Below, one piece after another: positions 1 through 64,000 of a DNA stretch of 64,000 bases. The notes beneath the pieces were generated by a model. It was not told the DNA's origin. It saw only the letters and a list, made by a program, of their open reading frames with translations, and did not search any database. Made by a program: the position numbers and the translations under genes. Origin of the DNA: Muricea muricata (Eukaryota > Cnidaria > Anthozoa > Malacalcyonacea > Plexauridae). Numbering within the stretch: the first letter of the stretch is position 1; each line of letters begins with the position of its first letter. The stretch lies in assembly GCA_963855995.1 (NCBI GenBank), contig OY979718.1, positions 29,545,282 to 29,609,281 on the forward strand. Reading direction: 5' to 3'.

Positions 1-323
1 ACATCATTTTAAGCTCTAAAACGTCACCCTGATCGATTTAAAACAGCAACTTTTCGTTGGTGATTTCAGCATGTTTTTACGTTCAAATCGCTTCTAGAGC
101 GCTTAAAACGCGATTTTTATAGTTCTAAGATCGTTTCTGTTCAGTGTACAAGCAAGTTATAGGTTTCTCATTTCAACATGTCATTTCGCTTATCCCGATG
201 GTTTGAGCGCCGAAAACGTGATTCCCGACTTGCTAAGTTCTGCAATTTCCATTTAGAAGGTCTCTTTTAGGTCCGTTATTGCAGTACATCATTGCACTCA
301 ACTCGTTCACTTTAGCACTGAAA
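1..323 (+). repeat. Type A satellite monomer (representative)
   Basis: Type A is recognised by AACAGCAACTTTTCGTTGG, GATTTCAGCATG, TCTAGAGCG, GTGTACAAGCAAG, CGCTTATCCCGATGG, GAAAACGTG and CATTTAGAAGG. Its inverted repeat is disrupted (arms GATTTCAGC and GTTCAAATC). It recurs at 1290, 2582, 4518, 5164, 11575 and many later starts. A sub-variant with CAGCAAG in place of CAGCATG occurs at 1290, 4518, 29961, 32866 and 34158. Confidence 0.9.
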
Positions 324-645
324 ACATCATTTTAAGCTCTAAAACGTCGCCCTGATCGACATAAAACGGCGATTTTTAGTTGGTGATTTGATTATGTTTT
401 TACGCTCAAATCGCTTCTAGAACACTTAAAACGCAATTTTGATGGTTCTAAGATCGTTGCTGTTCAGTTTACTAGAAAGTTATAGGTTTCTCATGTCAAC
501 GGGTTACTTCGCTCATCTCGATAGTTTAGCGCCGAAAACATGATTCCCGACCTGCTAAGTTCTGCAATTTCCATTTATTGGGTGTCTTTTAGGTCCGTCA
601 TTGCAGTACATTATTGCGCTCAACTCGTTCACTTTAGCACTGAAA
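324..645 (+). repeat. Type B satellite monomer (representative)
   Basis: Type B carries GTCGCCCTGATCGACATA where other types have GTCACCCTGATCGATTTA, plus TCTAGAACAC, GATCGTTGCTGTTCAG, TTTACTAGAAAG and CATTTATTGGG. It usually follows type A. This copy lacks one G in TTTGAGCGCC and has a damaged hairpin arm (GATTTGATT). Further copies lie at 2905, 4841, 8669, 11898 and 12867. Confidence 0.9.
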
Positions 646-968
646 ACATCATTTTAAGCTCTAAAACGTCACCCTGATCGATTTAAAACAGCAATTTTTC
701 GTTGGTGATTTGAGCATGTTTTTACGTTCAAATCGCTTCTAGAACGCTTAAAACGCGATTTTTATGGTTCTAAAATCGTTTCTGTTCAGTGTACAAGAAA
801 GTTATAGGTTTCTCATTTCAACATGTCATTTCGCTCATCCCGATGGTTTGAGCGCCGAAAACCTGATTCCCGACTTGCTAAGTTCTGCAATTTCCATTTA
901 TTAGGTCTTTTTTAGGTCCGTGAATGCAGTACATCATTGCGCTCAACTCGTTCACTTTAGCACTGAAA
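646..968 (+). repeat. Type C satellite monomer (representative)
   Basis: Type C is recognised by AACAGCAATTTTTCGTTGG, GCGATTTTTATGGTTC, GTGTACAAGAAAG and a tail with TATTAGGTCTTTTTTAGG and GTGAATGCAG. It normally follows type B. Other copies are at 3227, 8992, 12221 and about 18669. Confidence 0.88.
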
Positions 969-1289
969 ACATCATTTTAAGCTCAAAAACGTCACCCTGA
1001 TCGATTTAAAACGGCGATTTTAAGTTGGTGATTTGAGCATGTTTTCACGCTCAAATCGTTCTAGAACGGGTAAAACGCAATTTTGCTGGTTCTAAGATCA
1101 TTTCTTTTCAGTTTACAAGAGAGTTATAGGTTTCTCATGTCAACGGGTTACTTCGCTCATCTCGATAGTTTGAGCGCCGAAAACCTGATTCCCGACTTGC
1201 TAAGTTCTGCAATTTCATTTATTAGGTCTCTTTTAGGTCCGTGATTGCAGTACATTATTGCGCTCAACTCGTTCACTTTAGCACTGAAA
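969..1289 (+). repeat. Type D satellite monomer (representative)
   Basis: Type D is recognised by AAGCTCAAAAACGTC, AACGGCGATTTTAAG, GTTTTCACGC, GTTCTAGAACGGG, TTTTGCTGGTTC, TTTACAAGAGAG and GTCAACGGGTTACTTCGC. Other copies are at 4196, 9961, about 14480 and 16413. Confidence 0.88.
1030..1067 (+). repeat. Satellite inverted repeat plus 10-bp palindrome
   Basis: Within the monomer at 969 there is a perfect 9-bp inverted repeat, GATTTGAGC (1030-1038) and GCTCAAATC (1049-1057), around a 10-nt loop. It is followed directly by the perfect palindrome GTTCTAGAAC (1058-1067). The element recurs once per monomer. It is intact in most B, D, E, F, G and H monomers, has one mismatch in C (GTTCAAATC) and J (GCTTAAATC), and is disrupted in type A. 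The loop varies (ATGTTTTTAC, ATATTTTTAC, ATGTTTTCAC) while the arms are mostly kept. It could form a hairpin or be a protein site; neither is shown. Confidence 0.8.
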
Positions 1290-1612
1290 ACATCATTTTA
1301 AGCTCTAAAACGTCACCCTGATCGATTTAAAACAGCAACTTTTCGTTGGTGATTTCAGCAAGTTTTTACGTTCAAATCGCTTCTAGAGCGCTTAAAACGC
1401 GATTTTTATAGTTCTAAGATCGTTTCTGTTCAGTGTACAAGCAAGTTATAGGTTTCTCATTTCAACATGTCATTTCGCTTATCCCGATGGTTTGAGCGCC
1501 AAAAACGTGATTCCCGACTTGCTAAGTTCTGCAATTTCCATTTAGAAGGTCTCTTTTAGGTCCGTTATTGCAGTACATCATTGCACTCAACTCGTTCACT
1601 TTAGCACTGAAA

Positions 1613-1935
1613 ACATCATTTTAAGCTTTAAAACGTCACCCTGATTGATTTAAAACGGCAACTTTTAGTTGGTGATTTGAGCATATTTTTACGCTCAAAT
1701 CGCTTCTAGAACGCTTAAAACGCGATTTTGATGGTTCTAAGATCGTTTCTTCTCAGTTCACAAGTAAGCTCTACGTTTCTCATGTCAAGGTGTTATTTTG
1801 CTAATCTCGATGGTTTGAGAGCCGAAAATATGATTCCCGACATGCTTAGTTCTGCAATTTCCATTTATTGTGTCTCTTTCAGGTCCGTCATTGCAGTACG
1901 TTATTGCGCTCAACTCGTTCACTTTAGCACAGAAA
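1613..1935 (+). repeat. Type E satellite monomer (representative)
   Basis: Type E is recognised by AAGCTTTAAAACGTC, CTGATTGATTTA, TTCTTCTCAGTTCACAAG, AAGCTCTACG, GTCAAGGTGTTATTTTGC, GAGAGCCGAAAATATG and CCCGACATGC. Its tail is TATTGTGTCTCTTTCAGG here, but TAGAAGG in the sub-variants at 3873 and about 16090. It carries an open + frame of 79 codons that I regard as non-coding. Confidence 0.88.
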
Positions 1936-2258
1936 ACATCATTTTAAGTTCTAAAACGTCACCCTGATCGATTTAAAACGGCAATTTTAAGTTGGTGATT
2001 TGAGCATATTTTTACGCTCAAATCACTTCTAGAACGCTTAAAACGCAATTTTGATTGTTCTAAGATGGTTTCTTTTCAGTTTACAAGCAAGTTATAGGTT
2101 TCTCATTTCAACATGTCATTTCGCTCATCCCGTTCGTTTGAGCGCCAAAAACCTGATTCCCAACTTGCTAAGTTCTGCAATTACCATTTAGAAGGTCTCT
2201 TTTAGGTCCGTGATTGCAGTACATCATTGCGCTCAACTCGTTCACTTTAGCACTGAAA
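1936..2258 (+). repeat. Type F satellite monomer (representative)
   Basis: Type F is recognised by AAGTTCTAAAACG, AACGGCAATTTTAAG, AAATCACTTCTAGAACG, GATTGTTCTAAG, CATCCCGTT, GCGCCAAAAACC, CCCAACTTGC and AATTACCATTTAGAAGG. It usually follows E or J and precedes G. Other copies are at 10606, about 13513 and 63523. Confidence 0.88.
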
Positions 2259-2581
2259 ACATCATTTTAAGCTCTAAAACGTCACCCTGATGGATTTAAA
2301 ACGGCGATTTTAAGTTAGTGATTTGAGCATGTTTTTACGCTCAAATCGCTTCTAGAACACTTAAAACGCAATTTTGCTGGTTCTAAGATCGTTTCTTTTC
2401 AGTTTACAAGAGAGTTATAGGTTTCTCATGTCAACGGGTTACTTCGCTCATCTCGATAGTTTGAGCGCCGAAAACCTGATTCCCGACTTGCTAAGTTCTG
2501 CAATTTCCATTTATTCGGTCTCTTTTAGGTCCGTGATTTCAGTTCATTATTGCGCTCAACTTGTTCACTTTAGCACTGAAA
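2259..2581 (+). repeat. Type G satellite monomer (representative)
   Basis: Type G is recognised by CCTGATGGATTTAAAACGG, AAGTTAGTG, TCTAGAACAC and TTTTGCTGGTTC, with a D-like second half. A related G' form has GCTAAAATCTGC and CAACTTGTTC (11252, about 17702). The monomer at 10929 has a G front and an F back. Confidence 0.86.
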
Positions 2582-3549
2582 ACATCATTTTAAGCTCTAA
2601 AACGTCACCCTGATCGATTTAAAACAGCAACTTTTCGTTGGTGATTTCAGCATGTTTTTACGTTCAAATCGCTTCTAGAGCGCTTAAAACGCGATTTTTA
2701 TAGTTCTAAGATCGTTTCTGTTCAGTGTACAAGCATGTTATAGGTTTCTCATTTCAACATGTCATTTCGCTTATCCCGATGGTTTGAGCGCCGAAAACGT
2801 GATTCCCGACTTGCTAAGTTCTGCAATTTCCATTTAGAAGGTCTCTTTTAGGTCCGTTATTGCAGTACATCATTGCACTCAACTCGTTCACTTTAGCACT
2901 GAAAACATCATTTTAAGCTCTAAAACGTCGCCCTGATCGACATAAAACGGCGATTTTTAGTTGGTGATTTGAGCATGTTTTTACGCTCAAATCGCTTCTA
3001 GAACACTTAAAACGCAATTTTGATGGTTCTAAGATCGTTGCTGTTCAGTTTACTAGAAAGTTATAGGTTTCTCATGTCAACGGGTTACTTCGCTCATCTC
3101 GATAGTTTAGCGCCGAAAACATGATTCCCGACTTGCTAAGTTCTGCAATTTCCATTTATTGGGTGTCTTTTAGGTCCGTCATTGCAGTACATTATTGCGC
3201 TCAACTCGTTCACTTTAGCACTGAAAACATCATTTTAAGCTCTAAAACGTCACCCTGATCGATTTAAAACAGCAATTTTTCGTTGGTGATTTGAGCATGT
3301 TTTTACGTTCAAATCGCTTCTAGAACGCTTAAAACGCGATTTTTATGGTTCTAAGATCGTTTCTGTTCAGTGTACAAGAAAGTTATAGGTTTCTCATTTC
3401 AACATGTCATTTCGCTCATCCCGATGGTTTGAGCGCCGAAAACCTGATTCCCGACTTGCTAAGTTCTGCAATTTCCATTTATTAGGTCTTTTTTAGGTCC
3501 GTGAATGCAGTACATCATTGCGCTCAACTCGTTCACTTTAGCACTGAAA

Positions 3550-3872
3550 ACATCATTTTAAGCTTTAAAACGTCACCCTGATTGATTCAAAACGGCAACT
3601 TTTAGTTGGTGATTTGAGCATATTTTTACGCTCAAATTGCTTCTAGAACGCTTAAAACGCGATTTTGTTGGTTCTAAGATCGTTTCTGTTCTGTTTACAA
3701 GCAAGTTATAGGTTTCTGATTTCAACATGTCATTTCGCTCATCCCGATGGTTTGAGCGCCGAAAACCTGATTCCCGACTTGCTAAGTTCTGCAATTTCCA
3801 TTTATTAGGTCTTTTTTAGGTCCGTGAATGCAGTATATCATTGCGCTCAACTCGTTCACTTTAGCACTGAAA
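3550..3872 (+). repeat. Type H satellite monomer (representative)
   Basis: Type H is recognised by AAGCTTTAAAACGTC, CTGATTGATT, TTTTGTTGGTTC, TCTGTTCTGTTTACAAGC and TTTCTGATTTCAAC. Here the minus strand is open for 73 codons (3573-3794). I treat that as an accidental opening. Other copies are at 9315, 9638, 18992, 29003 and in super-block 2. Confidence 0.86.
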
Positions 3873-5474
3873 ACATCATTTTAAGCTTTAAAACGTCACC
3901 CTGATTGATTTAAAACGGCAACTTTCAGTTGGTGATTTGAGCATATTTTTACGCTCAAATCGCTTCTAGAACGCTTAAAACGCGATTTTGATGGTTCTAA
4001 GATCGTTTCTTCTCAGTTCACAAGTAAGCTCTACGTTTCTCATGTCAAGGTGTTATTTTGCTAATCTCGATAGTTTGAGAGCCGAAAATATGATTCCCGA
4101 CATGCTTAGTTCTGCAATTTCAATTTAGAAGGTCTCTTTTAGGTCCGTGAATGCAGTACATCATTGCGCTCAACTCGTTCACTTTAGCACTGAAAACATC
4201 ATTTTAAGCTCAAAAACGTCACCCTGATCGATTTAAAACGGCGATTTTAAGTTGGTGATTTGAGCATGTTTTCACGCTCAAATCGTTCTAGAACGGGTAA
4301 AATGCAATTTTGCTGGTTCTAAGATCGTTTCTTTTCAGTTTACAAGAGAGTTATAGGTTTCTCATGTCAACGGGTTACTTCGCTCATCTCGATAGTTTGA
4401 GCGCCGAAAACCTGATTCCCGACTTGCTAAGTTCTGCAATTTCCATTTATTAGGTCTCTTTTAGGTCCGTGATTGCAGTACATTATTGCGCTCAACTCGT
4501 TCACTTTAGCACTGAAAACATCATTTTAAGCTCTAAAACGTCACCCTGATCGATTTAAAACAGCAACTTTTCGTTGGTGATTTCAGCAAGTTTTTACGTT
4601 CAAATCGCTTCTAGAGCGCTTAAAACGCGATTTTTATAGTTCTAAGATCGTTTCTGTTCAGTGTACAAGCAAGTTATAGGTTTCTCATTTCAACATGTCA
4701 TTTCGCTTATCCCGATGGTTTGAGCGCCGAAAACGTGATTCCCGACTTGCTAAGTTCTGCAATTTCCATTTAGAAGGTCTCTTTTAGGTCCGTTATTGCA
4801 GTACATCATTGCACTCAACTCGTTCACTTTAGCACTGAAAACATCATTTTAAGCTCTAAAACGTCGCCCTGATCGACATAAAACGGCGATTTTTAGTTGG
4901 TGATTTGAGCATGTTTTTACGCTCAAATCGCTTCTAGAACACTTAAAACCCAATTTTGATGGTTCTAAGATCGTTGCTGTTCAGTTTACAAGAGAGTTAT
5001 AGGTTTCTCATGTCAACGGGTTACTTCGCTCATCTCGATAGTTTGAGCGCCGAAAACCTGATTCCCGACTTGCTAAAATCTGCAATTTCCATTTATTAGG
5101 TCTCTTTTAGGTCCGTGATTGCAGTACATTATTGCGCTCAACTTGTTCACTTTAGCACTGAAAACATCATTTTAAGCTCTAAAGCGTCACCCTGATCGAT
5201 TTAAAACAGCAACTTTTCGTTGGTGATTTCAGCATGTTTTTACGTTCAAATCGCTTCTAGAGCGCTTAAAACGCGATTTTTATAGTTCTAAGATCGTTTC
5301 TGTTCAGTGTACAAGCAAGTTATAGGTTTCTCATTTCAACATGTCATTTCGCTTATCCCGATGGTTTGAGCGCCGAAAACGTGATTCCCGACTTGCTAAG
5401 TTCTGCAATTTCCATTTAGAAGGTCTCTTTTAGGTCCGTTATTGCAGTACATCATTGCACTCAACTCGTTAACT

Positions 5475-5495
5475 TTATTATTATTATTATTATTA
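5475..5495 (-). repeat. (TTA)7 tract: LINE 3' tail, copy 1
   Basis: Seven TTA units on the + strand, reading (TAA)n at the element's 3' end. Short microsatellite tails instead of poly(A) are usual in CR1/L2-like and I-like LINEs, where they arise during target-primed reverse transcription. Confidence 0.88.
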
Positions 5496-5643
5496 GGATA
5501 CATTTATTAAGCGCAAATTATCATGAAAATGTTCAAATGCGCTATGAGAAAGGTTACAGTAAAAACTATTACATGAATTAATTAAAAATAATTAAGAATA
5601 GATATAATCTACATATATACAACTCAAATTTATTTATGGAAAA
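5496..5643 (-). other. LINE 3' UTR with stem-loop, copy 1
   Basis: AT-rich segment between the ORF2 stop and the tail. It contains 6-bp complementary arms AGCGCA (5510-5515) and TGCGCT (5538-5543), 22 nt apart, close to the 3' end. LINEs of this group often carry a terminal stem-loop recognised by their RT; that role is inferred here from position and shape only. Confidence 0.6.
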
Positions 5644-6548
5644 TTATATGGTAATATCATAAGCAAGACGAAATAGATAGGTTTTTAACTGTTTCTTAAA
5701 ATTATCCAGTGAATCTAAATGTCTTATTTCTTTGGGAAGACGATTCCATAGTTTCGGTGCAGCGAATTTAAACGCTCTGTCTGCGATTGAATTTGGTGAC
5801 TCATGGGACGGTACAGTAAGAAATATTTCATTACTCCTTCTAAGATTATAGTTAGGCAATTCCCTAATTTGGATTAAATCACACAAATATTCCGGAGCCA
5901 ATCCGTAAATCGCTTGAAAAGTTAAGATAAGAATCTTAAATTCTATCCGATACTTGACGGGAAGCCAGTGAAGTTCCTTTAAAAATGGACTAATGTGCAC
6001 AAATTTTGGGACCATATAGACCAATCTAGCTGCAGAATTCTGAACTCTCTGTAGTTTAGCGATTTGATAAGCCGGTAGTCCATACATTAGACAATTACAA
6101 TAGTCTAAACGAGAAATAACAAGCGCGTGAACGAGAGTGGCTGTAACATCCGTTGTTAAATATTTCCGAATCTTTCGGATATTATGCAGGAAGTAAAAAG
6201 ACGTTTTACATAGTTTGTTAATTTGTTCGTGAAAAGTCAGATTGGTATCCATCAGAATTCCCAAATTACTGAGGTTACAGGAAGGAATTATACTCTTTTC
6301 ACCAACTGAAATACAATTAAGGTCTACTTTGGAGATTTGCTGTCTTGTTCCAATTAACATACATTCTGTCTTATCATCGTTCATTTTTAATTTACTTCCA
6401 GCCATCCAGTCCCGCAAATTTGAAATGCAGTTTTCCATTTCCTCAACTTCTAGTTCCCGTTTACCAGCACAATTTGGGTTCAATGTACGGTACAGTTGGG
6501 TATCATCGGCATAACCGTGTGCTCCTTGCGAAGGGTTATCAATAACAG
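5644..6548 (-). pseudogene. LINE ORF2 fragment: RT YADD box, thumb and C-terminus, copy 1
   Basis: This is the continuation of the same RT in another frame. The frame is open from about 6548, and the catalytic YADD codons lie at 6502-6513, upstream of the first Met at 6483, so that Met is not a real start. Counting from Met 6483 (279 codons): WMAGSKLKMNDDKTE (26-40) and LGILMD (74-79) match the RT palm and motif E. SRLDYCNCLMYGLP, RVQNSAARLV and LHWLPVKYRIEFKI are the usual CR1/L2 C-terminal signatures. The end, LWNRLPKEIRHL to TYLFRLAYD, is the typical element terminus. With the upstream fragment it makes one broken protein. Residue 145 is Gln here and Lys in copy 2. Confidence 0.9.
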
Positions 6549-6551
6549 AAA
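6549..6551 (-). other. RT frameshift site, copy 1
   Basis: Codons of the upstream fragment start at coordinates congruent to 2 modulo 3, those of the downstream fragment at 0 modulo 3. Family-like sequence ends at YASDMF in the first frame and resumes within a few codons in the second, then reaches YADD. The switch is at a run of three T on the minus strand and fits a one-base loss there. The same break is in copy 2, so it predates the duplication. Confidence 0.75.
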
Positions 6552-7252
6552 CATGTCGCTTGCATAAATAATAAACAGCAACGGGCCAAGGCAGGAACCC
6601 TGAGGAACTCCATGATTTAGAGCAAATTCTTTTGATATTGAACCATCAACATGAATACGTAGTTTCCTATTTGTGAGATAGGATTTAAACCAAGATAGAG
6701 CGGTACCATTTATTCCAAAGTTTTGCTTCAAACGATTTAACAATATTGAATGGTCAATCGTATCGAAAGCTGCACTCAAATCTAGTAGAACCAGTAATGA
6801 AACCTGCTGATTACTCATATTTAGAAGAATGTCGTTTGTGATTTTGAGTAGAGCTGTCTCAGTGCTGTGATACTTCCGATATGCAGATTGGAGTTTGGGA
6901 TAAAGCTTGTTTATTAACAGATGGTTATTCAGTTGTTGGAATACAGCTTTCTCCGTGAGTTTAGAAACATATGATAGATTACTAATGAGGCGAAGATTTG
7001 GAAAACTAGAACCAAGGTCCACCTTTTTCAACAACGGGTAGCCAATAGCTTCCTTCCACATATCAGGAAACACACCATATTCAAGAGATAAATTGATTTG
7101 AGAAGTAATAACAGGCAGTAAGGTGTCTAGACATTCCAGCATCAGTGGTGTGGGCATGGGATCAAGTGCAAAATATTTCTTGCCGGTGTTTGAGATCAAT
7201 TTTTGTACATCATCTTCACTGAGGGGAGCAAAATTCAGTAGTCGACATAGAT

Positions 7253-7384
7253 TTGATGGACCTGTTGATGGACTCATAAGTGGACTTGATGGGCTAGTTG
7301 ATGGACTAGTTGATGGACTTATTAACAGACCTGTTGATGGACTTGTTGATGGACTCGTTGCTGAACTTGTTGATGGACTTGCTG
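7253..7384 (-). repeat. 12-bp minisatellite in the LINE linker, copy 1
   Basis: On the + strand the unit GTTGATGGACTT and close variants recur about ten times with some interruptions. On the coding strand it gives SPST-like repeats, residues about 431-474 of the endonuclease-RT frame. It keeps the frame, as expected for a slippage-prone flexible linker between endonuclease and RT. The open + frame over it (7123-7392) is a shadow. Confidence 0.85.
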
Positions 7385-8668
7385 ACGTGTGAGAATCGTT
7401 TGAATTAAATTGAGAGCGAATTGTGTCAATTTTTGAGATGAAATACTGGCCAAGTTCATTTACGAGGCAATTTTTATCTTGATGGTCCGAAAAGCTTAAA
7501 TTATTCTTAGGAGTTAATAGATTCTTGGCAATTGAAAACAGCTTACTTTGATTGTGAGAATTTTCATTTACAATCCTAGCGTAGAACTCGCATTTTGCAC
7601 GATGCATCAGATGATTTGCTTTATTCTTGATGAATTTAAACTGCATCAAGTCAGATTCTTTGTTCGTTTTTCTCCACAATTTTTCTGCTTTTCTTCTGCG
7701 CCTTTTTATCGCTTTGATTTCATCAGAGAACCATGGAACATAGGGCCTTGTTGTGATGTTCTTCTTTAGAAGTGGAGCGTGGATCTCCAGTAGTTTTGAA
7801 AGAGTTGTATTGAAACTTTCCGCAAGTTCATTAATATTCGAATGTGCTTGAGAGAATAGGCTGGATGAACGTAGATCTTCTCTCAACACAGATATATTAA
7901 CGTTACTAAGTTTTCTATATTGTACTGACTTTTTCTTTAATGGCGGTTTTAGCAATGATAAACAGCATATGACAGACATATGGTCTGAAATGCAAAAGTC
8001 AGCTTTGGGCGATTCTTTCAAAATGTGATCGCTAGTCCTAGTGATTATAAGATCCAATGTGTGGCCGTGTGTGTGTGTTGGACCACGGACATGTTGCTCA
8101 AGGCCAAATGACTCAAGTAGATCGTGAAATTTTAAAGCATCAGCATTTGAGGAATTGTCGACGTGTATATTAAAGTCTCCAGTGATCAGAATAGAATGTT
8201 GGCAAACAATAACTGATTCTAAATAATCAGTAAGTTCGGCGAAAAATATTCCAATTGGAATAGGATGAGCTCTGGAATAGGGAGGTCTGTAGATAATAAT
8301 CAGTTTCACAGGCAACGACCTACGAGGACGAATAATCCATTCCGAAAATTCAAAGGAATTCAAAGTTGCAGAAGTCACTTTCTCGACTGGCAAGGTTTCT
8401 TTGTAGAGCAGAGCTGTTCCACCACCCCTCGAATCAGAACGAGGACAATCTGATAAACAATAACCAGAAGGGGTGCAGTCTATTTTTGCGGCGGTATCTC
8501 TATCTTTAAACCAGGTTTCTGTTACCGCGACAAGTTCTGGTTTGATATCACAAACATAGTCATTGAAAACGGAAGATTTACTTTTGAGAGAGCGGGCATT
8601 TAGGACCATAAGTTTAAAACATTTTTCACAATTTATGCCGCGATTTGGTTTCTTTAAGGACGCCTGGG

Positions 8669-52723: not shown

Positions 52724-55700
52724 TGATTCCCGACTTGCTAAGTTCTGCAATTTCTATTTATTAGGTCTTTTTTAGGTCCGTAAATGCAGTACATCATTGC
52801 GCTCAACTCGTTCACTTTAGCACTGAAAACATCATTTTAAGCTTTAAAACGTCACCCTGATTGATTTAAAACGGCAACTTTTAGTTGGTGATTTGAGCAA
52901 ATTTTTACGCTCAAACCGCTTCTAGAACGCTTAAAACGCGATTTTGTTGATTCTAAGATCGTTTCTGTTCTGTTTACAAGCAAGTTATAGGTTTCTCATT
53001 TCAACATGTCATTTCGCTTATCCCGATGGTTTGAGCGCCGAAAACGTGATTCCCGACTTGCTAAGTTCTGCAATTTCCATTTAGAAGGTCTCTTTTAGGT
53101 CCGTTATTGCAGTACAACATTGCACTCAACTCGTTCACTTTAGCACTGAAAACATCATTTTAAGCTCTAAAACGTCGCCCTGATCGACATAAAACGGCGA
53201 TTTTTAGTTGGTGATTTGAGCATGTTTTTACGCTCAAATCGCTTCTAGAACACTTAAAACGCAATTTTGATGGTTCTAAGACCGTTGCTGTTCAGTTTAC
53301 AAGAGAGTTATAGGTTTCTCATGTCAACGGGTTACTTCGCTCATCTCGATAGTTTGAGCGCCGAAAACATGATTCCCGACTTGCTAAGTTCCGCAATTTC
53401 CATTTATTAGGTCTTTTTTAGGTCCGTGAATGCAGTACATCATTGCGCTCAACTCGTTCACTTTAGCACTGAAAACATCATTTTAAGCTCTAAAACATCA
53501 CCCTGATGGATTTAAAACGGCGATTTTAAGTTAGTGATTTGAGCGTGTTTTTACGCTCAAATCGCTTCTAGAACACTTAAAACGCAATTTTGCTGGTTCT
53601 AAGATCGTTTCTTTTCAGTTTACAAGAGAGTTATAGGTTTCTCATGTCAACGGGTTACTTCGCTCATCTCGATAGTTTGAGCGCCGAAAACCTGATTCCC
53701 GACTTGCTAAGTTCTGCAATTTCCATTTATTGTGTCTCTTTCAGGTCCGTCATTGCAGTACGTTATTGCGCTCAACTCGTTCACTTTAGCACAGAAAACT
53801 TCATTTTAAGTTCTAAAACGTCACCCTGATCGATTTAAAACGGCAATTTTAAGTTGGTGATTTGAGCATATTTTTACGCTCAAATCACTTCTAGAACGCT
53901 TAAAACGCGATTTTGATTGTTCTAAGATCGTTCTTTTCAGTTTACAAGAGAGTTATAGGTTTCTCATTTCAACATGTCATTTCGCTCATCCCGTTGGTTT
54001 GAGCGCCAAAAACCTGATTCCCAACTTGCTAAGTTCTGCAATTACCATTTAGAAGGTCTCTTTTAGGTCCGTGATTGCAGTACATCATTGCGCTCAACTC
54101 GTTCACTTTAGCACTGAAAACATCATTTTAAGCTCTAAAACGTCACCCTGATGGATTTAAAACAGCAACTTTTCGTTGGTGATTTCAGCATGTTTTTACG
54201 TTCAAATCGCTTCTAGAGCGCTTAAAACGCGATTTTTATAGTTCTAAGATCGTTTCTGTTCAGTGTACAAGCAAGTTATAGGTTTCTCATTTCAACATGT
54301 CATTTCGCTTATCCCGATGGTTTGAGCGCCGAAAACGTGATTCCCGACTTGCTAAGTTCTGCAATTTTCATTTAGAAGGTCTCTTTTAGGTCCGTTATTG
54401 CAGTACATCATTGCACTCAACTCGTTCACTTTAGCACTGAAAACATCATTTTAAGCTCTAAAACGTCGCCCTGATCGACATAAAACGGCGATTTTTAGTT
54501 GGTGATTTGAGCATGTTTTTACGCTCAAATCGCTTCTAGAACACTTAAAACGCAATTTTGATGGTTCTAAGATCGTTGCTGTTCAGTTTACTAGAAAGTT
54601 ATAGGTTTCTCATGTCAACGGGTTACTTCGCTCATCTCGATAGTTTGAGCGCCGAAAACATGATTCCCGACTTGCTGAGTTCTGCAATTTCCATCTAGAA
54701 GGTCTTTTTTAGGTCCGTGAATGCAGTACATCATTGCGCTCAACTCGTTCACTTTAGCACTGAAAACATCATTTTAAGCTCAAAAACGTCACCCTGATCG
54801 ATTTAAAACGGCGATTTTAAGTTGGTGATTTGAGCATGTTTTCACGCTAAAATCGTTCTAGAACGGGTAAAACGCAATTTTGCTGGTTCTAAGATCGTTT
54901 CTTTTCAGTTTACAAGAGAGTTATAGGTTTCTCATATCAACGGGTTACTTCGCTCATCTCGATAGTTTGAGCGCCGAAAACATGATTCCCGACTTGATAA
55001 GTTCTACAATTTCCATTTATTGGGTCTCTTTTAGGTCCGTCATTGCAGTACATTATTGCGCTCAACTCGTTCTTAGCACTGAAAACATCGTTTTAAGCTC
55101 TAAAACGTCACCCTGAGCGATTTAAAACAGCAATTTTTAGTTGGTGATTTGAGCATGTTTTCACGCTTAAATCGTTCTAGAATGGGTAAAACGCAATTTT
55201 GATGGTTCTAAGATCGTTTCTGTTAAGTTTACTAGAGAGTTTTCGGTTTCTCATGTCAACGGGTTACTTCGCTCATCTCGATAGTTTGAGCGCCGAAAAC
55301 CTGATTCCCGACTTGCTAAGTTCTGCAATTTCCATTTATTGTGTCTCTTTCAGGTGCGTCATTGCAGTACGTTACTGCGCTCAACTCGTTGACTTTAGCA
55401 CAGAAAACTTCATTTTAAGTTCTAAAACGTCACCCTGATCGATTTAAAACGGCAATTTTAAGTTGGTGATTTGAGCATATTTTTACGCTCAAATCACTTC
55501 TAGAACGCTTAAAACGCGATTTTGATTGTTCTAAGATCGTTCTTTTCAGTTTACAAGCAAGTTATAGGTTTCTCATTTCAACATGTCATTTCGCTCATCC
55601 CGTTGGTTTGAGCGCCAAAAACCTGATTCCCAACTTGCTAAGTTCTGCAATTACCATTTAGAAGGTCTCTTTTAGGTCCGTGATTGCAGTACATCATTGC

Positions 55701-58700
55701 GCTCAACTCGTTCACTTTAGCACTGAAAACATCATTTTAAGCTCTAAAACGTCGCCCTGATCGACATAAAACGGCGATTTTTAGTTGGTGATTTGAGCAT
55801 GTTTTTACGCTCAAATCGCTTCTAGAACACTTAAAACGCAATTTTGATGGTTCTAAGATCGTTGCTGTTCAGTTTACTAGAAAGTTATAGGTTTCTCATG
55901 TCAACGGGTTACTTCGCTCATCTCGATAGTTTGAGCGCCGAAAACATGATTCCCGACTTGCTGAGTTCCGCAATTTCCATTTATTGGGTCTCTTTTAGGT
56001 CCGTCATTTCAGTACATTATTGCGCTCAACTCGTTCACTTTAGCACTGAAAACATCATTTTAAGCTCTAAAACGTCACCCTGATCGATTTGAAACAGCAA
56101 CTTTTCGTTGGTAATTTCAGCATGTTTTTACGTTCAAATCGCTTCTAGAGCGCTTAAAACGCGATTTTTATAGTTCTAAGATCGTTTCTGTTCAGTGTAC
56201 AAGCAAGTTATAGGTTTCTCATTTCAACATGTCATTTCGCTTATCCCGATGGTTTGAGCGCCGAAAACGTGATTCCCGACTTGCTAAGTTCTGCAATTTC
56301 CATTTAGAAGGTCTCTTTTAGGTCCGTTATTGCAGTACATCATTGCACTCAACTCGTTCACTTTAGAACTGAAAACATCATTTTAAGCTCTAAAACGTTG
56401 CCCTGATCGACATAAAACGGCAACTTTTAGTTGGTGATTTGAGCATATTTTTACGCTCAAATCGATTCTAGAACGCTTAAAACGCGATTTTGATGGTTCT
56501 AAGATCGTTTCTTCTCAGTTCACAAGTAAGCTCTACGTTTCTCATGTCAAGGTGTTATTTTGCTAATCTCGATAGTTTGAGAGCCGAAAATATGATTCCC
56601 GACATGCTTAGTTCTGCAATTTCAATTTAGAAGGTCTCTTTTAGGTCCGTGAATGCAGTACATCATTGCGCTCAACTCGTTCACTTTAGCACTGAAAACA
56701 TCATTTTAAGCTCAAAAACGTCACCCTGATCGATTTAAAACGGCGATTTTAAGTTGGTGATTTGAGCATGTTTTCACGCTAAAATCGTTCTAGAACGGGT
56801 AAAACGCAATTTTGCTGGTTCTAAGATCGTTTCTTTTCAGTTTACAAGAGAGTTATAGGTTTCTCATGTCAACGGGTTACTTCGCTCATCTCGATAGTTT
56901 GAGCGCCGAAAACATGATTCCCGACTTGATAAGTTCTACAATTTCCATTTATTGGGTCTCTTTTAGGTCCGTCATTGCAGTACATTATTGCACTCAACTC
57001 GTTCACTTTAGCACTGAAAACATCATTTTAAGCTCTAAAACGTCACCCTGAGCGATTTAAAACAGCAATTTTTAGTTGGTGATTTGAGCATGTTTTCACG
57101 CTTAAATCGTTCTAGAATGGGTAAAACGCAATTTTGATGGTTCTAAGATCGTTTCTGTTAAGTTTACTAGAGAGTTTTTGGTTTCTCATGTCAACGGGTT
57201 ACTTCGCTCATCTCGATAGTTTGAGCGCCGAAAACCTGATTCCCGACTTGCTAAGTTCTGCAATTACCATTTAGAAGGTCTCTTTTAGGTCCGTGATTGC
57301 AGTACATCATTGCGCTCAACTCGTTCACTTTAGCACTGAAAACATCATTTTAAGCTCTAAAACGTCACCCTATGGATTTAAAACGGCGATTTTAAGTGAG
57401 TGATTTGAGCATGTTTTCACGCTTAAATCGTTCTAGAATGGGTAAAACGCAATTTTGATGGTTCTAAGATCGTTTCTGTTAAGTTTACTAGAGAGTTTTC
57501 GGTTTCTCATGTCAACGGGTTACTTCGCTCATCTCGATAGTTTGAGCGCCGAAAACCTGATTCCCGACTTGCTAAGTTCTGCAATTTCCATTTATTGTGT
57601 CTCTTTCAGGTCCGTCATTGCAGTACGTTATTGCGCTCAACTCGTTCACTTTAGCACAGAAAACTTCATTTTAAGTTCTAAAACGTCACCCTGATCGATT
57701 TAAAACGGCAATTCTAAGTTGGTGATTTGAGCATATTTTTACGCTCAAATCACTTCTAGAACGCTTAAAACGCGATTTTGATTCTTCTAAGATCGTTCTT
57801 TTCAGTTTACAAGCAAGTTATAGGTTTCTCATTTCAACATGTCATTTCGCTCATCCCGTTGGTTTGAGCGCCAAAAACCTGATTCCCAACTTGCTAAGTT
57901 CTGCAATTACCATTTAGAAGGTCTCTTTTAGGTCCGTGATTGCAGTACATCATTGCGCTCAACTCGTTCACCTTAGCACTGAAAACATCATTTTAAGCTC
58001 TAAAACGTCACCCTGATGGATTTAAAACGGCGATTTTAAGTTAGTGATTTGAGCATGTTTTTACGCTCAATACGCTTCTAGAACACTTACAACGCAATTT
58101 CGCTGGTTCTAAGATCGTTTCTTTTCAGTTTACAAGAGAGTTATAGGTTTCTCATGTCAACGGGTTACTTCGCTCATCTCGATAGTTTGAGCGCCGAAAA
58201 CCTGATTCCCGACTTGCTAAAATCTGCAATTTCCATTTATTAGGTCTCTTTTAGGTCCGTGATTGCAGTACATTATTGCGCTCAACTTGTTCACTTTAGC
58301 ACTGAAAACATCATTTTAAGCTCTAAAACGTCACCCTGATCGATTTAAAACAGCAACTTTTCGTTGGTGATTTCAGCATGTTTTTACGTTCAAATCGCTT
58401 CTAGAGCGCTTAAAACGCGATTTTTATAGTTCTAAGATCGTTTCTGTTCAGTGTACAAGCAAGTTATAGGTTTCTCATTTCAACATGTCATTTCGCTTAT
58501 CCCGATGGTTTGAGCGCCGAAAACGTGATTCCCGACTTGCTAAGTTCTGCAATTTTCATTTAGAAGGTCTCTTTTAGGTCCGTTATTGCAGTACATCATT
58601 GCACTCAACTCGTTCACTTTAGCACTGAAAACATCATTTTAAGCTCTAAAACGTCGCCCTGATCGACATAAAACGGCGATTTTTAGTTGGTGATTTGAGC

Positions 58701-60140
58701 ATGTTTTTACGCTCAAATCGCTTCTAGAACACTTAAAACGCAATTTTGATGGTTCTAAGATCGTTGCTGTTCAGTTTACTAGAAAGTTATAGGTTTCTCA
58801 TGTCAACGGGTTACTTCGCTCATCTCGATAGTTTGAGCGCCGAAAACATGATTCCCGACTTGCTGAGTTCTGCAATTTCCATTTATTGGGTCTCTTTTAG
58901 GTCCGTCATTGCAGTACATTATTGCGCTCAACTCGTTCACTTTAGCTCTGAAAACATCATTTTAAGCTCTAAAACGTCACCCTGATCGATTTAAAACAGC
59001 AATTTTTCATTGGTGATTTGAGCATGTTTTTACGTTCAAATCGCTTCTAGAACGCTTAAAACGCGATTTTTATGGTTCTAAGATCGTTTCAGTTCAGTGT
59101 ACAAGAAAGTTATAGGTTTCTCATGTCAACGGGTTACTTCGCTCATCTCGATAGTTTGAGCGCCGAAAACATGATTCCCGACTTGCTAAGTTCTGCAATT
59201 TCCATTTATTAGGTCTTTTTTAGGTCCGTGAATGCAGTACATCATTGCGCTCAACTCGTTCACTTTAGCACTGAAAACATCATTTTAAGCTTTAAAACGT
59301 CACCCTGATTGATTTAAAACGGCAACTTTTAGTTGGTGATTTGAGCATATTTTTACGCTCAAATCGCTTCTAGAACGCTTAAAACGCGATTTTGTTGATT
59401 CTAAGATCGTTTCTGTTCTGTTTACAAGCAAGTTATAGGTTTCTAATTTCAACATGTCATTTCGCTCATCCCGATGGTTTGAGCGCCGAAAACCTGATCC
59501 CCGACTTGCTAAGTTCTGCAATTTACATTTAGAATGTCTCTTTTAGGTCACTGATTGCAGTACATCATTGCGCTCAACTCGTTCACTTTAGCACTGAAAA
59601 CATCATTTTATGCTTTAAAACGTCACCCTGATCGATTTTAAACGGCAACTTTTAGTTGGTAATTTGAGCATGTTTTTACGTTCAAATCGCTTCTAGAATG
59701 CTTAAAACGCGATTTTGATGGTTCTTAGATCGTTTTTTCTCAGTTCGCAAGTAAGCTCTACGTTTCTCATGTCAAGGTGTTATTTTGCCAATTATCGATG
59801 GTTTGAGAGCCGAAAATATGATTCCCGACATGCTTAGTTCTGCAATTTCAATTTAGAAGGTCTCTTTTAGGTCCGTGAATGCAGTACATCATTGCGCTCA
59901 ACTCGTTCACTTTAGCACTGAAAACATCATTTTAAGCTCAAAAACGTCACCCTGATCGATTTAAAACGGTGATTTTAAGTTGGTGATTTGAGCATGTTTT
60001 CACGCTCAAATCGTTCTAGAACGGGTAAAACGCAATTTTGCTGGTTCTAAGATCGTTTCTTTTCAGTTTACAAGAGAGTTATAGGTTTCTCATGTCAACG
60101 GGTTACTTCGCTCATCTCGATAGTTTGAGCGCCGAAAACC
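52724..60140 (+). repeat. 23-monomer higher-order repeat, block 2 copy 2
   Basis: Homologue of 19856-27272 at offset 32868. It keeps that copy's diagnostic bases: 53499 C and 56367 A. Changes seen only here include 57179 T, 57784 C and 59661 A. Confidence 0.9.
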
Positions 60141-62505
60141 TGATTCCCGACTTGCTAAGTTCTGCAATTACCATTTAGAAGGTCTCTTTTAGGTCCGTGA
60201 TTGCAGTATATCATTGCGCTCAACTCGTTCACTTTAGCACTGAAAACATCATTTTAAGCTCTAAAACGTCACCCTGATCGATTTAAAACGGCAATTTTAA
60301 GTTGGTGATTTGAGCATATTTTTACGCTCAAATCACTTCTAGAACGCTTAAAACGCGATTTTGATTGTTCTAAGATCGTTCTTTTCAGTTTACAAGCAAG
60401 TTATAGGTTTCTCATTTCAACATGTCATTTCGCTCATCCCGTTGGTTTGAGCGCCAAAAACCTGATTCCCAACTTGCTAAGTTCTGCAATTACCATTTAG
60501 AAGGTCTCTTTTAGGTCCGTGATTGCAGTACATCATTGCGCTCAACTCGTTCACCTTAGCACTGAAAACATCATTTTAAGCTCTAAAACGTCACCCTGAT
60601 GGATTTAAAACGGCGATTTTAAGTTAGTGATTTGAGCATGTTTTTACGCTCAATACGCTTCTAGAACACTTACAACGCAATTTCGCTGGTTCTAAGATCG
60701 TTTCTTTTCAGTTTACAAGAGAGTTATAGGTTTCTCATGTCAACGGGTTACTTCGCTCATCTCGATAGTTTGAGCGCCGAAAACCAGATTCCCGACTTGC
60801 TAAAATCTGCAATTTCCATTTATTAGGTCTCTTTTAGGTCCGTGATTGCAGTACATTATTGCGCTCAACTTGTTCACTTTAGCACTGAAAACATCATTTT
60901 AAGCTCTAAAACGTCACCCTGATCGATTTAAAACAGCAACTTTTCGTTGGTGATTTCAGCATGTTTTTACGTTCAAATCGCTTCTAGAGCGCTTAAAACG
61001 CGATTTTTATAGTTCTAAGATCGTTTCTGTTCAGTGTACAAGCAAGTTATAGGTTTCTCATTTCAACATGTCATTTCGCTTATCCCGATGGTTTGAGCGC
61101 CGAAAACGTGATTCCCGACTTGCTAAGTTCTGCAATTTTCATTTAGAAGGTCTCTTTTAGGTCCGTTATTGCAGTACATCATTGCACTCAACTCGTTCAC
61201 TTTAGCACTGAAAACATCATTTTAAGCTCTAAAACGTCGCCCTGATCGACATAAAACGGCGATTTTTAGTTGGTGATTTGAGCATGTTTTTACGCTCAAA
61301 TCGCTTCTAGAACACTTAAAACGCAATTTTGATGGTTCTAAGATCGTTGCTGTTCAGTTTACTAGAAAGTTATAGGTTTCTCATGTCAACGGGTTACTTC
61401 GCTCATCTCGATAGTTTGAGCGCCGAAAACATGATTCCCGACTTGCTGAGTTCTGCAATTTCCATTTAATGGGTCTCTTTTAGGTCCGTCATTGCAGTAC
61501 ATTATTGCGCTCAACTCGTTCACTTTAGCACTGAAAACATCATTTTAAGCTCTAAAACGTCACCCTGATCGATTTAAAACAGCAATTTTTCATTGGTGAT
61601 TTGAGCATGTTTTTACGTTCAAATCGCTTCTAGAACGCTTAAAACGCGATTTTTATGGTTCTAAGATCGTTTCAGTTCAGTGTACAAGAAAGTTATAGGT
61701 TTCTCATGTCAACGGGTTACTTCGCTCATCTCGATAGTTTGAGCGCCGAAAACATGATTCCCGACTTGCTAAGTTCTGCAATTTCCATTTATTAGGTCTT
61801 TTTTAGGTCCGTGAATGCAGTACATCATTGCGCTCAACTCGTTCACTTTAGCACTGAAAACATCATTTTAAGCTTTAAAACGTCACCCTGTTTGATTTAA
61901 AACGGCAACTTTTAGTTGGTGATTTGAGCATATTTTTACGCTCAAATCGCTTCTAGAACGCTTAAAACGCGATTTTGTTGATTCTAAGATCGTTTCTGTT
62001 CTGTTTACAAGCAAGTTATAGGTTTCTAATTTCAACATGTCATTTCGCTCATCCCGATGGTTTGAGCGCCGAAAACCTGATTCCCGACTTGCTAAGTTCT
62101 GCAATTTACATTTAGAATGTCTCTTTTAGGTCACTGATTGCAGTACATCATTGCGCTCAACTCGTTCACTTTAGCACTGAAAACATCATTTTATGCTTTA
62201 AAACGTCACCCTGATCGATTTTAAACGGCAACTTTTAGTTGGTGATTTGAGCATGTTTTTACGCTCAAATCGCTTCTAGAACACTTAAAACGCAATTTTG
62301 CTGGTTCTAAGATCGTTTCTTTTCAGTTTACAAGAGAGTTATAGGTTTCTCATGTCAACGGGTTACTTCGCTCATCTCGATAGTTTGAGCGCCGAAAACC
62401 TGATTCCCGACTTGCTAAAATCTGCAATTTCCATTCATTAGGTCTCTTTTAGGTCCGTGATTGCAGTACATTATTGCGCTCAACTTGTTCACTTTAGCAC
62501 TGAAA
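60141..62505 (+). repeat. Partial third copy, block 2 (seven monomers, altered end)
   Basis: Homologue of 27273-29.39 kb: F,G',A,B,C,H, then a monomer at 62183 that starts as the E variant (ATTTTATGCTTTAAAACG) and changes near 62260 to a G' back (TCTAGAACAC, GCTAAAATCTGC). The D monomer present in block 1 is missing. A base change at 61469 makes a stop in the B monomer's + frame, showing that frame is not protected. Confidence 0.83.
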
Positions 62506-63200
62506 ACATCATTTTAAGCTCTAAAACGTCACCCTGATCGATTTAAAACAGCAACTTTTCGTTGGTGATTTCAGCATGTTTTTACGTTCAAATCGCTTCT
62601 AGAGCGCTTAAAACGCGATTTTTATAGTTCTAAGATCGTTTCTGTTCAGTGTACAAGCAAGTTATAGGTTTCTCATTTCAACATGTCATTTCGCTTATCC
62701 CGATGGTTTGAGCGCCGAAAACGTGATTTCCGACTTGCTAAGTTCTGCAATTTTCATTTAGAAGGTCTCTTTTAGGTCCGTTATTGCAGTACATCATTGC
62801 ACTCAACTCGTTCACTTTAGCACTGAAAACATCATTTTAAGCTCTAACATTATTTTAACATCATTATTTTTATCATCATTTTAACATTATTTTAAGCTTG
62901 TCGCCCTGATCGACATAAAACGGCGATTTTTAGTTGGTGATTTGAGCATGTTTTTACGCTCAAATCGCTTCTAGAACACTTAAAACGCAATTTTGATGGT
63001 TCTAAGATCGTTGCTGTTCAGTTTACTAGAAAGTTATAGGTTTCTCATGTCAACGGGTTACTTCGCTCATCTCGATAGTTTGAGCGCCGAAAACATGATT
63101 CCCGACTTGCTGAGTTCTGCAATTTCCATTTAGAAGGTCTCTTTTAGGTCCGTGAATGCAGTACATCATTGCGCTCAACTCGTTCACTTTAGCACTGAAA
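62506..63200 (+). repeat. Satellite monomers A and B flanking a low-complexity insertion
   Basis: A type A monomer (62506-62828) and a type B monomer (62829-63200). The B monomer is 372 bp long, 49 more than usual. Its tail is TAGAAGG followed by GTGAATGCAG, an E-variant tail on a B body. Confidence 0.82.
62848..62899 (+). other. AT-rich 49-bp net insertion in a B monomer
   Basis: Between CTCTAA and GTCGCCCTG an intact monomer has three bases; here there are 52. The insert repeats variants of the adjoining satellite word ACATCATTTTAA (ACATTATTTTAA, ACATCATTATT, ATCATCATTTTAA, ACATTATTTTAA), so local slippage or template switching is the simplest origin. It is the only sequence in the window that is neither ordinary monomer nor LINE. 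Confidence 0.85.
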
Positions 63201-63522
63201 ACATCATTTTAAGCTCAAAAACGTCACCCTGATCGATTTAAAACGGCGATTTTAAGTTGGTGATTTGAGCATGTTTTCACGCTAAAATCGTTCTAGAACG
63301 GGTAAAACGCAATTTTGCTGGTTCTAAGATCGTTTCTTTTCAGTTTACAAGAGAGTTATACGTTTCTCATGTCAAGGTGTTATTTTGCTAATCTCGATGG
63401 TTTGAGAGCCGAAAATATGATTCCCGACATGCTTAGTTCTGCAATTTCCATTTATTGTGTCTCTTTCGGGTCCGTCATTGCAGTACGTTATTGCGCTCAA
63501 CTCGTTCACTTTAGCACAGAAA
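63201..63522 (+). repeat. D/E chimeric satellite monomer
   Basis: The first about 150 bp are type D (AAGCTCAAAAACG, GTTCTAGAACGGG, TTTACAAGAGAG). From about 63360 it is type E (TACGTTTCTCATGTCAAGG, GAGAGCCGAAAATATG, TTTCGGGTCC). The switch falls within GAGAGTTATACGTTTC. The rare TTTCGGGTCC shows that the E half derives from the homologue of 30.6-30.9 kb. Confidence 0.82.
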
Positions 63523-64000
63523 ACATCATTTTAAGTTCTAAAACGTCACCCTGATCGATTTAAAACGGCAATTTTAAGTTGGTGATTTGAGCATATTTTT
63601 ACGCTCAAATCACTTCTAGAACGCTTAAAACGCGATTTTGATTGTTCTAAGATCGTTTCTTTTCAGTTTACAAGCAAGTTATAGGTTTCTCATTTCAACA
63701 TGTCATTTCGCTCATCCCGTTGGTTTGAGCGCCAAAAACCTGATTCCCAACTTGCTAAGTTCTGCAATTACCATTTAGAAGGTCTCTTTTAGGTCCGTGA
63801 TTGCAGTACATCATTGCGCTCAACTCGTTCACTTTAGCACTGAAAACATCATTTTAAACTCTAAAACGTCACCCTGATGGATTTAAAACGGCGATTTTAA
63901 GTTAGTGATTTGAGCATGTTTTTACGCTCAAATCGCTTCTAGAACACTTAAAACGCAATTTTGCTGGTTCTAAGATCGTTTCTTTTCAGTTTACAAGAGA
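63523..64000 (+). repeat. Satellite monomers F and G (partial) at the window end
   Basis: A type F monomer (63523-63845) and the first 155 bp of a type G monomer (63846 onward), cut by the window edge. They match 30930-31407 at an offset of 32593. Confidence 0.85.

What the first reader, a model, noticed from the sequence alone, without database searches (positions are those of the whole stretch)
1..64000. Two tandem periods of a roughly 32-kb super-higher-order repeat that includes a LINE
The order of about 88 monomer types, nested duplications and a LINE with identical junctions in block 1 (1-31575) is repeated in block 2 (31576-64000). Piecewise offsets of 31575, 33191, 32868 and 32593 bp change only by nearly whole monomers. 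A higher-order unit this long, with a retroelement as part of the unit, is far larger than classic higher-order repeats of a few kb. Possible origins are unequal exchange over tens of kb, rolling-circle reintegration of an extrachromosomal circle, or a false duplication in assembly.
Basis: seen in the sequence. Interest (0 to 1): 0.8.

Follow-up and report, generated by a model that had tools for sequence, protein, structure and literature searches.

The report
Recently duplicated LINE-bearing satellite block
Inside a megabase-sized array of 323-bp repeats near the middle of a chromosome of an unnamed, probably animal, species, a stretch of about 35-42 kb that had already caught a jumping gene was recently copied head-to-tail, which shows how such arrays grow by large exchanges, a process already known from other organisms.

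Summary
The duplication is real in this assembly, but its limits and meaning need correcting. The window lies in a 323-bp satellite array of about 1.2-1.4 Mb near the middle of a 60.7-Mb contig. Window 1586-29395 and 34777-62263 are near-identical (10 substitutions in 27,571 aligned bases, no single-base indels, one monomer gained, one lost). The block limits 1/31575/64000 are not the real ones: the piece between the copies (29.4-34.2 kb) is itself a copy of sequence left of the window. The likeliest cause is one in-register unequal exchange in a 130-bp zone (29266-29395), doubling a unit of 41,582 bp, or 35,126 bp if a 6.5-kb duplication in copy 1 came later. A rival reading, that the tandem order at that zone is older, is not excluded. 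The LINE entered once. Four copies with identical junctions (two outside the window, 36.8 and 43.5 kb after the second) were made by satellite duplication, with tree ((1,2),(3,4)). An older, partial third period lies to the right, up to a flip of array orientation. This is a local, two-to-three-period arrangement, not a homogenised super-HOR. Precedents exist (maize CEN10; human LTR-array HORs). A haplotype misjoin cannot be excluded without reads.

The parts
1..64000 (+). 323-bp satellite array, one orientation throughout the window, interrupted only by two LINE copies
   Evidence: TRF; 179 monomer anchors; array context
1..1585 (+). Left part of copy 1 that copy 2 largely lacks; the end of the second copy (Lb) of a 6,456-bp tandem duplication reaches 1216
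1586..29395 (+). Copy 1 of the near-identical segment U (contains LINE copy 1 and the nested duplications)
   Evidence: 10 substitutions in 27,571 aligned bases with copy 2
34777..62263 (+). Copy 2 of segment U (contains LINE copy 2)
5478..8668 (-). LINE copy 1: non-LTR retrotransposon with endonuclease and reverse-transcriptase domains, TTA-repeat (TAA in its own sense) 3' tail at 5478, 5'-truncated, ORF interrupted; joins the satellite without an obvious target duplication and with about 9 bp of monomer missing
38669..41859 (-). LINE copy 2, same junctions, 2 of 3,191 positions different
29266..29395 (+). Probable exchange zone (130 bp, across the border of monomers 28992 and 29315): matches both the end of copy 2 and the start of the unit left of the window (-12316..-12187); also collinear with the inner 8-monomer unit, so a second reading exists
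29396..34190 (+). J, start of the second unit: copy of -12186..-7392 (2 differences) and, from 29580, of -5546..-936 (2 differences in 4,611)
34481..34803 (+). Extra monomer in copy 2, no mismatch to monomer 33189-33511 in the alignment
41860..42182 (+). Hybrid monomer in copy 2 after the LINE (5' part like 8669-8902, 3' part like 9142-9314): loss of one monomer
12375..19884 (+). First copy of nested 7,417-bp (23-monomer) tandem duplication in copy 1
   Evidence: 5 mismatches in 7,510
19792..27301 (+). Second copy of the nested 7,417-bp duplication (93-bp overlap with the first)
45243..52752 (+). Nested duplication, first copy, in copy 2
52660..60169 (+). Nested duplication, second copy, in copy 2
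27392..29884 (+). Eight-monomer (2,583-bp offset) duplicate of 24809-27301, older (6 mismatches in 2,493); it runs through the probable exchange zone, while in copy 2 the same match ends at 62243-62263
62264..64000 (+). Right flank found only after copy 2: starts like several places in the left part (-7343, -6697, -887: 99.1% over 565 bp); one monomer (62829, 372 bp) carries a 49-bp AT-rich insert

Best explanation
A LINE inserted once into a 323-bp satellite array (shown by identical junctions in four copies). The array then grew by successive in-register exchanges between similar but non-allelic monomers. Order inferred from differences: local duplications now 0.5-0.8% apart; next, at about the same level (0.24-0.25%), the split between the LINE 1/2 and LINE 3/4 lineages and an 8-monomer duplication, whose mutual order is open; then a 23-monomer duplication; and last the event that doubled the LINE 1 block. 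The last event was most likely one exchange between a site at about -12.3 kb and the right end of the block, in 130 bp where both are identical. It doubled 41,582 bp (or 35,126 bp if the 6,456-bp La/Lb duplication is later), with the LINE as passenger. Each copy then gained its own substitutions and whole-monomer gains and losses. Shown: the copies, whole-monomer offsets, origin of the middle piece, order of the nested event, and the LINE tree. Inferred: the exact exchange point, unequal crossing-over (or break-induced copying) rather than reinsertion of a circle, and a centromeric role.
For: 28602-29395 equals the end of copy 2 with no mismatch; 29266-34190 equals -12316..-7392 with two mismatches; the two parents are identical over the 130-bp overlap, 97.8% alike over 323 bp to its left and 85.8% to its right. 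All 29 listed young repeat pairs (>=1,500 bp, mismatch fraction <=0.0025) in 264 kb are offset by whole monomers. Two other tandem duplications leave similar overlaps: 93 bp (7,417; 92 of 93 equal) and 307 bp (6,456; 306 of 307 equal). Four-way comparison of the 7,417-bp copies: 8 variable sites, of which 3 separate first from second nested copy in both blocks (the nested duplication came first), 5 are private, 0 group by block. Four LINE copies share both 30-bp junctions; 11 variable columns, of which 5 separate {1,2} from {3,4} and 6 are private. The 200-bp flanks of the five other copies matching 1-3191 show no match to this satellite region.
Against: The order seen at 29.3-29.9 kb may therefore be old, with the breaks at La's left edge and at copy 2's right edge instead. 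I lowered this explanation from 0.8 to 0.7 for that. Only one assembly was seen, with no reads, depth or second haplotype. Copy 2 is 7 monomers shorter before 1257 if the 6,456-bp duplication is later, 27 if earlier, so further gains or losses must be assumed. J differs from La and Lb almost equally, so the unit length is ambiguous. Sequence cannot tell sister exchange from break-induced replication or homologous reinsertion of a circle.
Confidence: 0.7

Rival explanations
1. The tandem order was older: periods of the form L-U-L-U already existed, the last event was a homologous exchange (or conversion) between such periods and left no new junction, and the outer ends (La's left edge, copy 2's right edge) are later losses of whole monomers.
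For: Copy 1 passes through the zone collinear with the inner 8-monomer unit. The sequence after copy 2 starts like the left part at -7343 (99.1% over 565 bp), as if a stretch of L were missing. An older L-like plus U-start plus LINE order exists further right.
Against: It needs two independent breaks inside the same 130 bp of a 33-41-kb unit. J and La differ by only 2 in about 4.9 kb, so they are as young as the copies.
Confidence: 0.2
2. Assembly artefact: two haplotypes (or two graph paths) of one LINE-bearing block were laid end to end.
For: The copies differ by only 0.036% plus a few whole-monomer indels, which a pair of alleles could also show. No reads were available. Satellite arrays are where assemblers fail.
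Against: No N in 264 kb. The parents of the join share only 130 identical bases there, far less than a long-read overlap normally needs (the overlap norm is recalled). Both copies have private substitutions: LINE 3/4 place one change on LINE 1 and one on LINE 2. Similar young duplications occur elsewhere in the array (13,882; 6,456; 8,397 bp), and the LINE 3/4 pair is older than the LINE 1/2 pair.
Confidence: 0.14
3. An extrachromosomal circle carrying the unit was cut out and reinserted by homology.
For: It gives the same product as unequal exchange when reinsertion is in register; nothing in the sequence excludes it.
Against: It needs two steps where one suffices. In the 264 kb read there is no third young copy, as rolling-circle products would tend to give.
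Confidence: 0.06
4. A true, homogenised ~33-kb super-HOR: the 92-monomer unit with its LINE is repeated many times in the array.
For: A third partial period with LINE copies 3 and 4 lies 36.8 kb further on.
Against: The whole-genome LINE search lists only four copies in the array (40 of 73 first-look candidates scored). The third period is older and partial. Lag 92 is not among the eight best lags of the 203-monomer stretch to the left.
Confidence: 0.05
5. Two (or four) independent LINE insertions into the same monomer position.
For: None found; some non-LTR elements are site-specific (recalled).
Against: Same 5' truncation point, same 3' tail, a shared unusual base in the left flank (GTTAACTTTA) and the same flanking 30 bp in four of four copies.
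Confidence: 0.01

Closest known systems
Maize centromere 10: 22.7-kb adjacent segmental duplication and CentC HORs formed by adjacent duplications (PMC4806543; passages seen)
   Same: Adjacent duplication of tens of kb in a centromere, with retroelements inside; chimeric monomer from loss of a monomer; neighbouring arrays in opposite orientation.
   Different: The maize 22.7-kb block is mostly nested and partial retrotransposons joined at 5 nt of microhomology; here it is nearly pure satellite, offsets are whole monomers, and the unit is 35-42 kb.
Human pericentromeric LTR arrays on chromosomes 13, 18 and 21 (PMC2588610; passages; section 8 read)
   Same: A higher-order unit of tens of kb (six ~3.5-kb monomers) marked by one retroelement insertion (LTR6A) duplicated with the unit; monomer losses ascribed to unequal crossing-over.
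   Different: The monomers there are themselves retroelement-derived and the HOR is repeated several times; here there is a 323-bp satellite, two young copies and one older partial copy.
Human alpha-satellite HORs with hybrid monomers and structural variants (PMC9549924; passages seen)
   Same: Phase-conserving hybrid monomers; unequal crossover and conversion as presumed motors.
   Different: No homogenised HOR unit here; period 92 monomers in only two to three copies.
Tribolium madens satellite arrays with orientation switches, 'macro-dyad symmetries' (PMC13081366; passages seen)
   Same: Long satellite arrays whose orientation flips, as at about window +90.7 kb.
   Different: No near-identical inverted arms seen here (longest inverted match in the list 2,369 bp).

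Membership tests
Satellite higher-order repeat (HOR) | A block of distinct monomers repeated in the same order, copies far more alike than the monomers | tested here: met
   99.96% between copies against 91% between monomers
Satellite higher-order repeat (HOR) | The unit is iterated many times and homogenised over a large part of the array | tested here: not met
   Two young copies and one older partial copy in the 264 kb read; lag 92 not among the eight best lags of the 203-monomer left stretch; the rest of the array was sampled only by 1-kb probes
Tandem duplication by unequal homologous exchange in a satellite | In-register join in a zone identical in both parents, whole-monomer offset | tested here: inconclusive
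   Zone 29266-29395 and whole-monomer offsets are found, but copy 1 is also collinear there with the inner 8-monomer unit, so the join may be older
Tandem duplication by unequal homologous exchange in a satellite | Reciprocal deletion product or new variant in a pedigree or population | not testable with these tools
   Only one assembly held
Non-LTR retrotransposon (LINE) with exo/endonuclease-family endonuclease | Endonuclease and reverse transcriptase domains | tested here: met
   PF03372 1.2e-12, PF14529 1.3e-9 and PF00078 8.5e-21
CR1/L2-like clade of LINEs | Placement on a reverse-transcriptase tree; 3' end of short repeats instead of poly(A) | tested here: inconclusive
   3' end is a TAA-type repeat in the LINE's own sense, typical of that clade from recall; no tree built. 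The two listed hits named with an organism are both from the coral Oculina patagonica, 47-48% identity (120 of 478 hits listed)
Centromeric satellite | CENP-A/CENH3 occupancy | not testable with these tools
   Only position is known: about 29.3-30.5 Mb of a 60.66-Mb contig

The most novel reading that the evidence does not exclude
In this lineage a megabase, possibly centromeric array grows chiefly by long exchanges of about 20-120 monomers. These use short identical or nearly identical zones (about 90-310 bp) inside otherwise different monomers and carry a trapped LINE along as a marker, so that each event can be ordered. The array would then be a natural record of turnover by large single events rather than by monomer-scale slippage.
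Probability: 0.28. Interest if true: 0.55.

Novelty: new member of a known kind. Interest (0 to 1): 0.4.

Why it matters
How centromere-like arrays turn over is still argued: slippage, unequal exchange, conversion, or copying after breaks. Here the probable exchange point can be narrowed to 130 bp, several duplications can be ordered by shared and private changes, and a single LINE insertion gives four copies with a clean tree as an independent check. It is a good worked example in an organism outside the usual models, but the process itself is known.

Tried and rejected

Led nowhere: naming the species (protein hits mostly unnamed; the listings of paper searches showed no matching 323-bp satellite; passages of a coral cytogenetics paper, PMC12355185 gave nothing matching). 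Distribution of the satellite on other contigs: the pattern search did not complete. Two centromere papers wanted by DOI are not held. I do not claim that this locus is absent from print; paper searches made.

One search showed a second reading of the zone. The nearer left stretch (66 monomers) cannot show lag 92. Odds were lowered for the first.

Limits of the scripts: monomers were cut at a fixed anchor (6 or 9 mismatches allowed), so some divergent monomers may be missed. The two monomers before the in-window LINEs were cut to 314 bp, and the last monomer is partial. Monomer identities come from a MAFFT alignment and ignore gaps. The LINE search scored 40 of 73 first-look candidates; the satellite search scored 2 of 3,497. 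The identities outside the zones are ungapped and not used.
Full report
WHERE IT IS. One-kb probes place the satellite from about 29.295 Mb to between 30.509 and 30.709 Mb, near the middle of the contig, with at least two changes of orientation (12 of 12 probes from 29,345,282 to 30,509,282 are satellite; the probe at 29,295,282 is partly so; the seven beyond, six to the left and one to the right, are not). I fetched 100 kb on each side. All 264 kb are satellite apart from four LINE copies and one 440-bp insert; there is no N. Orientation is + up to window coordinate about 90,708 and - from there to the end of what I read. Coordinates below zero or above 64,000 are window coordinates continued outward.

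THE SATELLITE. TRF gives a 323-bp unit. The 179 monomers of the window are on average 91.0% alike (range 82.9-100%); the best lag is 92 monomers at 97.3%. There are 87 distinct sequences among the 179 and 66 among the first 88.

THE TWO COPIES. Ungapped extension gives 1586-8902 / 34777-42093 (7,317 bp, 4 mismatches) and 9142-29395 / 42010-62263 (20,254 bp, 6 mismatches). The ten differences are all substitutions. Between the two pieces copy 2 has lost one monomer: its monomer 41860-42182 is a hybrid of 8669-8991 and 8992-9314. Near its left end copy 2 has one extra monomer, 34481-34803, without mismatch to 33189-33511.

THE JOIN. Looking outside the window explains the middle piece. Bases 29580-34190 equal -5546..-936 at offset 35126 with 2 mismatches in 4,611. 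At offset 41582 the match runs from 29266 to 34190 with mismatches only at 29441 and 34098; left of 29266 there are 10 mismatches in 443 bp. The end of copy 2 matches from 28602 to 29395 without mismatch and then stops. Bases 29266-29395 thus match both presumed parents, which are identical over these 130 bp, 97.8% alike over the 323 bp to the left and 85.8% over the 323 bp to the right. In random in-register monomer pairs of the window an exact run of 130 or more occurs in 9% (3,000 pairs), so such zones are easy to find in this array. The simplest reading is one unequal exchange there, doubling 41,582 bp. The left part of copy 1 contains a 6,456-bp tandem duplication (-12002..-5240 / -5546..1216, 6 mismatches in 6,763). 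If that is younger, the unit was 35,126 bp. Over 29580-34190 the three versions J, La and Lb differ at two columns only, so the order cannot be decided.

A SECOND READING OF THE JOIN. Copy 1 runs through this zone collinear with the inner 8-monomer unit (offset -2583: 4 mismatches over 28600-29884; the same counts at offsets -10000 and +22868, one more at +30285). So the order at 29.3-29.9 kb may be older than the last event, with the breaks at La's left edge and copy 2's right edge. The sequence after copy 2 (62264-62828) resembles several places in the left part, for example -7343..-6779 at 99.1%, as if monomers had been lost there. This reading needs two breaks in the same 130 bp, and J and La are as alike as the young copies, so I keep the exchange as the better explanation, at 0.7 instead of the 0.8 I first gave.

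OTHER EVENTS OF THE SAME KIND. With thresholds of 1,500 bp and 0.25% mismatch there are 29 repeat pairs in the 264 kb. All 29 offsets are whole monomers after subtracting LINE length (largest deviation 0.087 monomer). They include 13,882 bp (43 monomers, 2 mismatches in 16,439, at -90.3..-60.0 kb), 7,417 bp (23 monomers), 6,456 bp (20) and 8,397 bp (26). Many pairs are not independent, since they show the same event between different copies. The overlaps left by the 7,417 and 6,456 duplications are 93 and 307 bp, each with one mismatch between the outer parents.

ORDER. The four versions of the 7,417-bp unit have 8 variable sites: 3 separate first from second nested copy in both blocks, 5 are private to one version, and none separates block 1 from block 2. 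The nested duplication therefore preceded the large one. The 8-monomer duplication (offsets 2583 and 10000) has 6 differences in about 2,500 bp and is older; the LINE 1/2 versus 3/4 split is at about the same level (8 in 3,191). Local duplications at 99.2-99.4% (offsets 4197, 2905, 28994) are older still. No absolute dates are given, because no mutation rate is known for this organism.

THE LINE. It is 3,191 bp, read on the minus strand, with endonuclease (PF03372, PF14529) and reverse-transcriptase (PF00078) domains in one 746-aa open frame and the rest in another frame. Of the 120 protein relatives listed (478 found), two are named with an organism, both Oculina patagonica, a coral, at 47-48%. 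It is truncated at its 5' end: flanks of four of the five other copies matching 1-3191 continue with a shared sequence (TGGTCTTGTTGGAATATCC or close to it), while the fifth (C1:2056114) does not. The genome search lists 50 matches with 40 of 73 candidates scored: nine span the full query, four of them in this array. The 200-bp flanks of the other five have no match to the 264-kb region at 1e-5. All four array copies have the same 30 bp on each side. At the insertion about 9 bp of the monomer are missing and no target duplication is obvious (sequence). The alignment of the four copies has 11 variable columns: 5 separate {1,2} from {3,4}, one of them a 1-base indel, and 6 are private; differences 2 (1-2), 4 (3-4), 8 (each cross pair). 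The LINE thus entered once and was multiplied by the satellite.

THE THIRD PERIOD. Right of the window, LINE copies begin at 75,455 and 82,189, i.e. 36,786 and 43,520 bp after LINE 2. Their surroundings repeat the order in part: pieces like the left part (63359-65985, 66304-68711, 68660-72602; 99.2-99.5%), then 72949-79086 and 80848-86687 like 2972-9108 and 4137-9975 (99.8-99.9%), the second being a 6,734-bp-offset duplicate of the first with a left-part-like piece (79052-81757) before it. Near the orientation switch 89731-90697 resembles 10115-11081 at 99.0%, but it resembles other places almost as well (98.9%), so this is weak. I found no match there to the nested 23-monomer part. Left of -12.8 kb the list of matches of 2,500 bp or more shows none to the unit. 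Lag 92 is not among the eight best lags of the 203-monomer stretch -100 to -34.5 kb; the 66-monomer stretch nearer by is too short to show it. Over the whole LINE domain lag 92 (0.938) is second to lag 249 (0.940, 31 pairs only).

ARTEFACT? Against a misjoin: no N, a join whose parents share only 130 identical bases, private changes in both LINE copies (LINE 3/4 assign one change to LINE 1 and one to LINE 2), and events of the same kind at several other places and ages. For it: no reads or second haplotype could be examined, and 0.036% divergence would fit alleles. I put the chance of an artefact at about 14%.

KNOWN OR NEW. Maize CEN10 has a 22.7-kb adjacent duplication with retroelements, HORs from adjacent duplication, and a chimeric monomer after loss of one monomer (PMC4806543, passages). 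Human LTR arrays have HORs of six ~3.5-kb units each marked by one LTR6A insertion (PMC2588610, section 8). A review of human centromeres reports hybrid monomers and presumes unequal crossover and conversion (PMC9549924, passages). A study of complete human centromeres infers saltatory amplification that simple unequal crossover may not explain (PMC11062924, passages). What is seen here is a clear further case, large and well resolved, not a new kind.

Noticed in passing
about 90708 (window coordinates, outside the window; C3:29,635,989): The satellite array flips orientation at one point within a monomer; no long near-identical inverted arms were found in the 264 kb read.
   Followed up: partly
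-34487..-34048 (window coordinates; L015:5513-5952): A 440-bp insert with long inverted ends and an internal run of ACCCTA telomere-like repeats, looking like a small non-autonomous DNA transposon.
   Followed up: no
-90296..-59976: A 13,882-bp (43-monomer) unit in about 2.2 tandem copies with 2 mismatches in 16,439 bp, apparently younger still than the duplication in the window.
   Followed up: partly
62829-63200: A 372-bp monomer with a 49-bp AT-rich insert (CATTATTTTAA-type short repeats).
   Followed up: no
C33, C2, C3 and C1: The same LINE family has five listed near-full-length copies outside the array (98-99% identical), their flanks unlike this satellite, which suggests a low-copy, recently active family.
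   Followed up: partly
left part of the array, -100000..-34488: Monomers there are less alike to the reference monomer (88%) than those right of -34 kb (92-93%), suggesting an older flank of the array.
   Followed up: no
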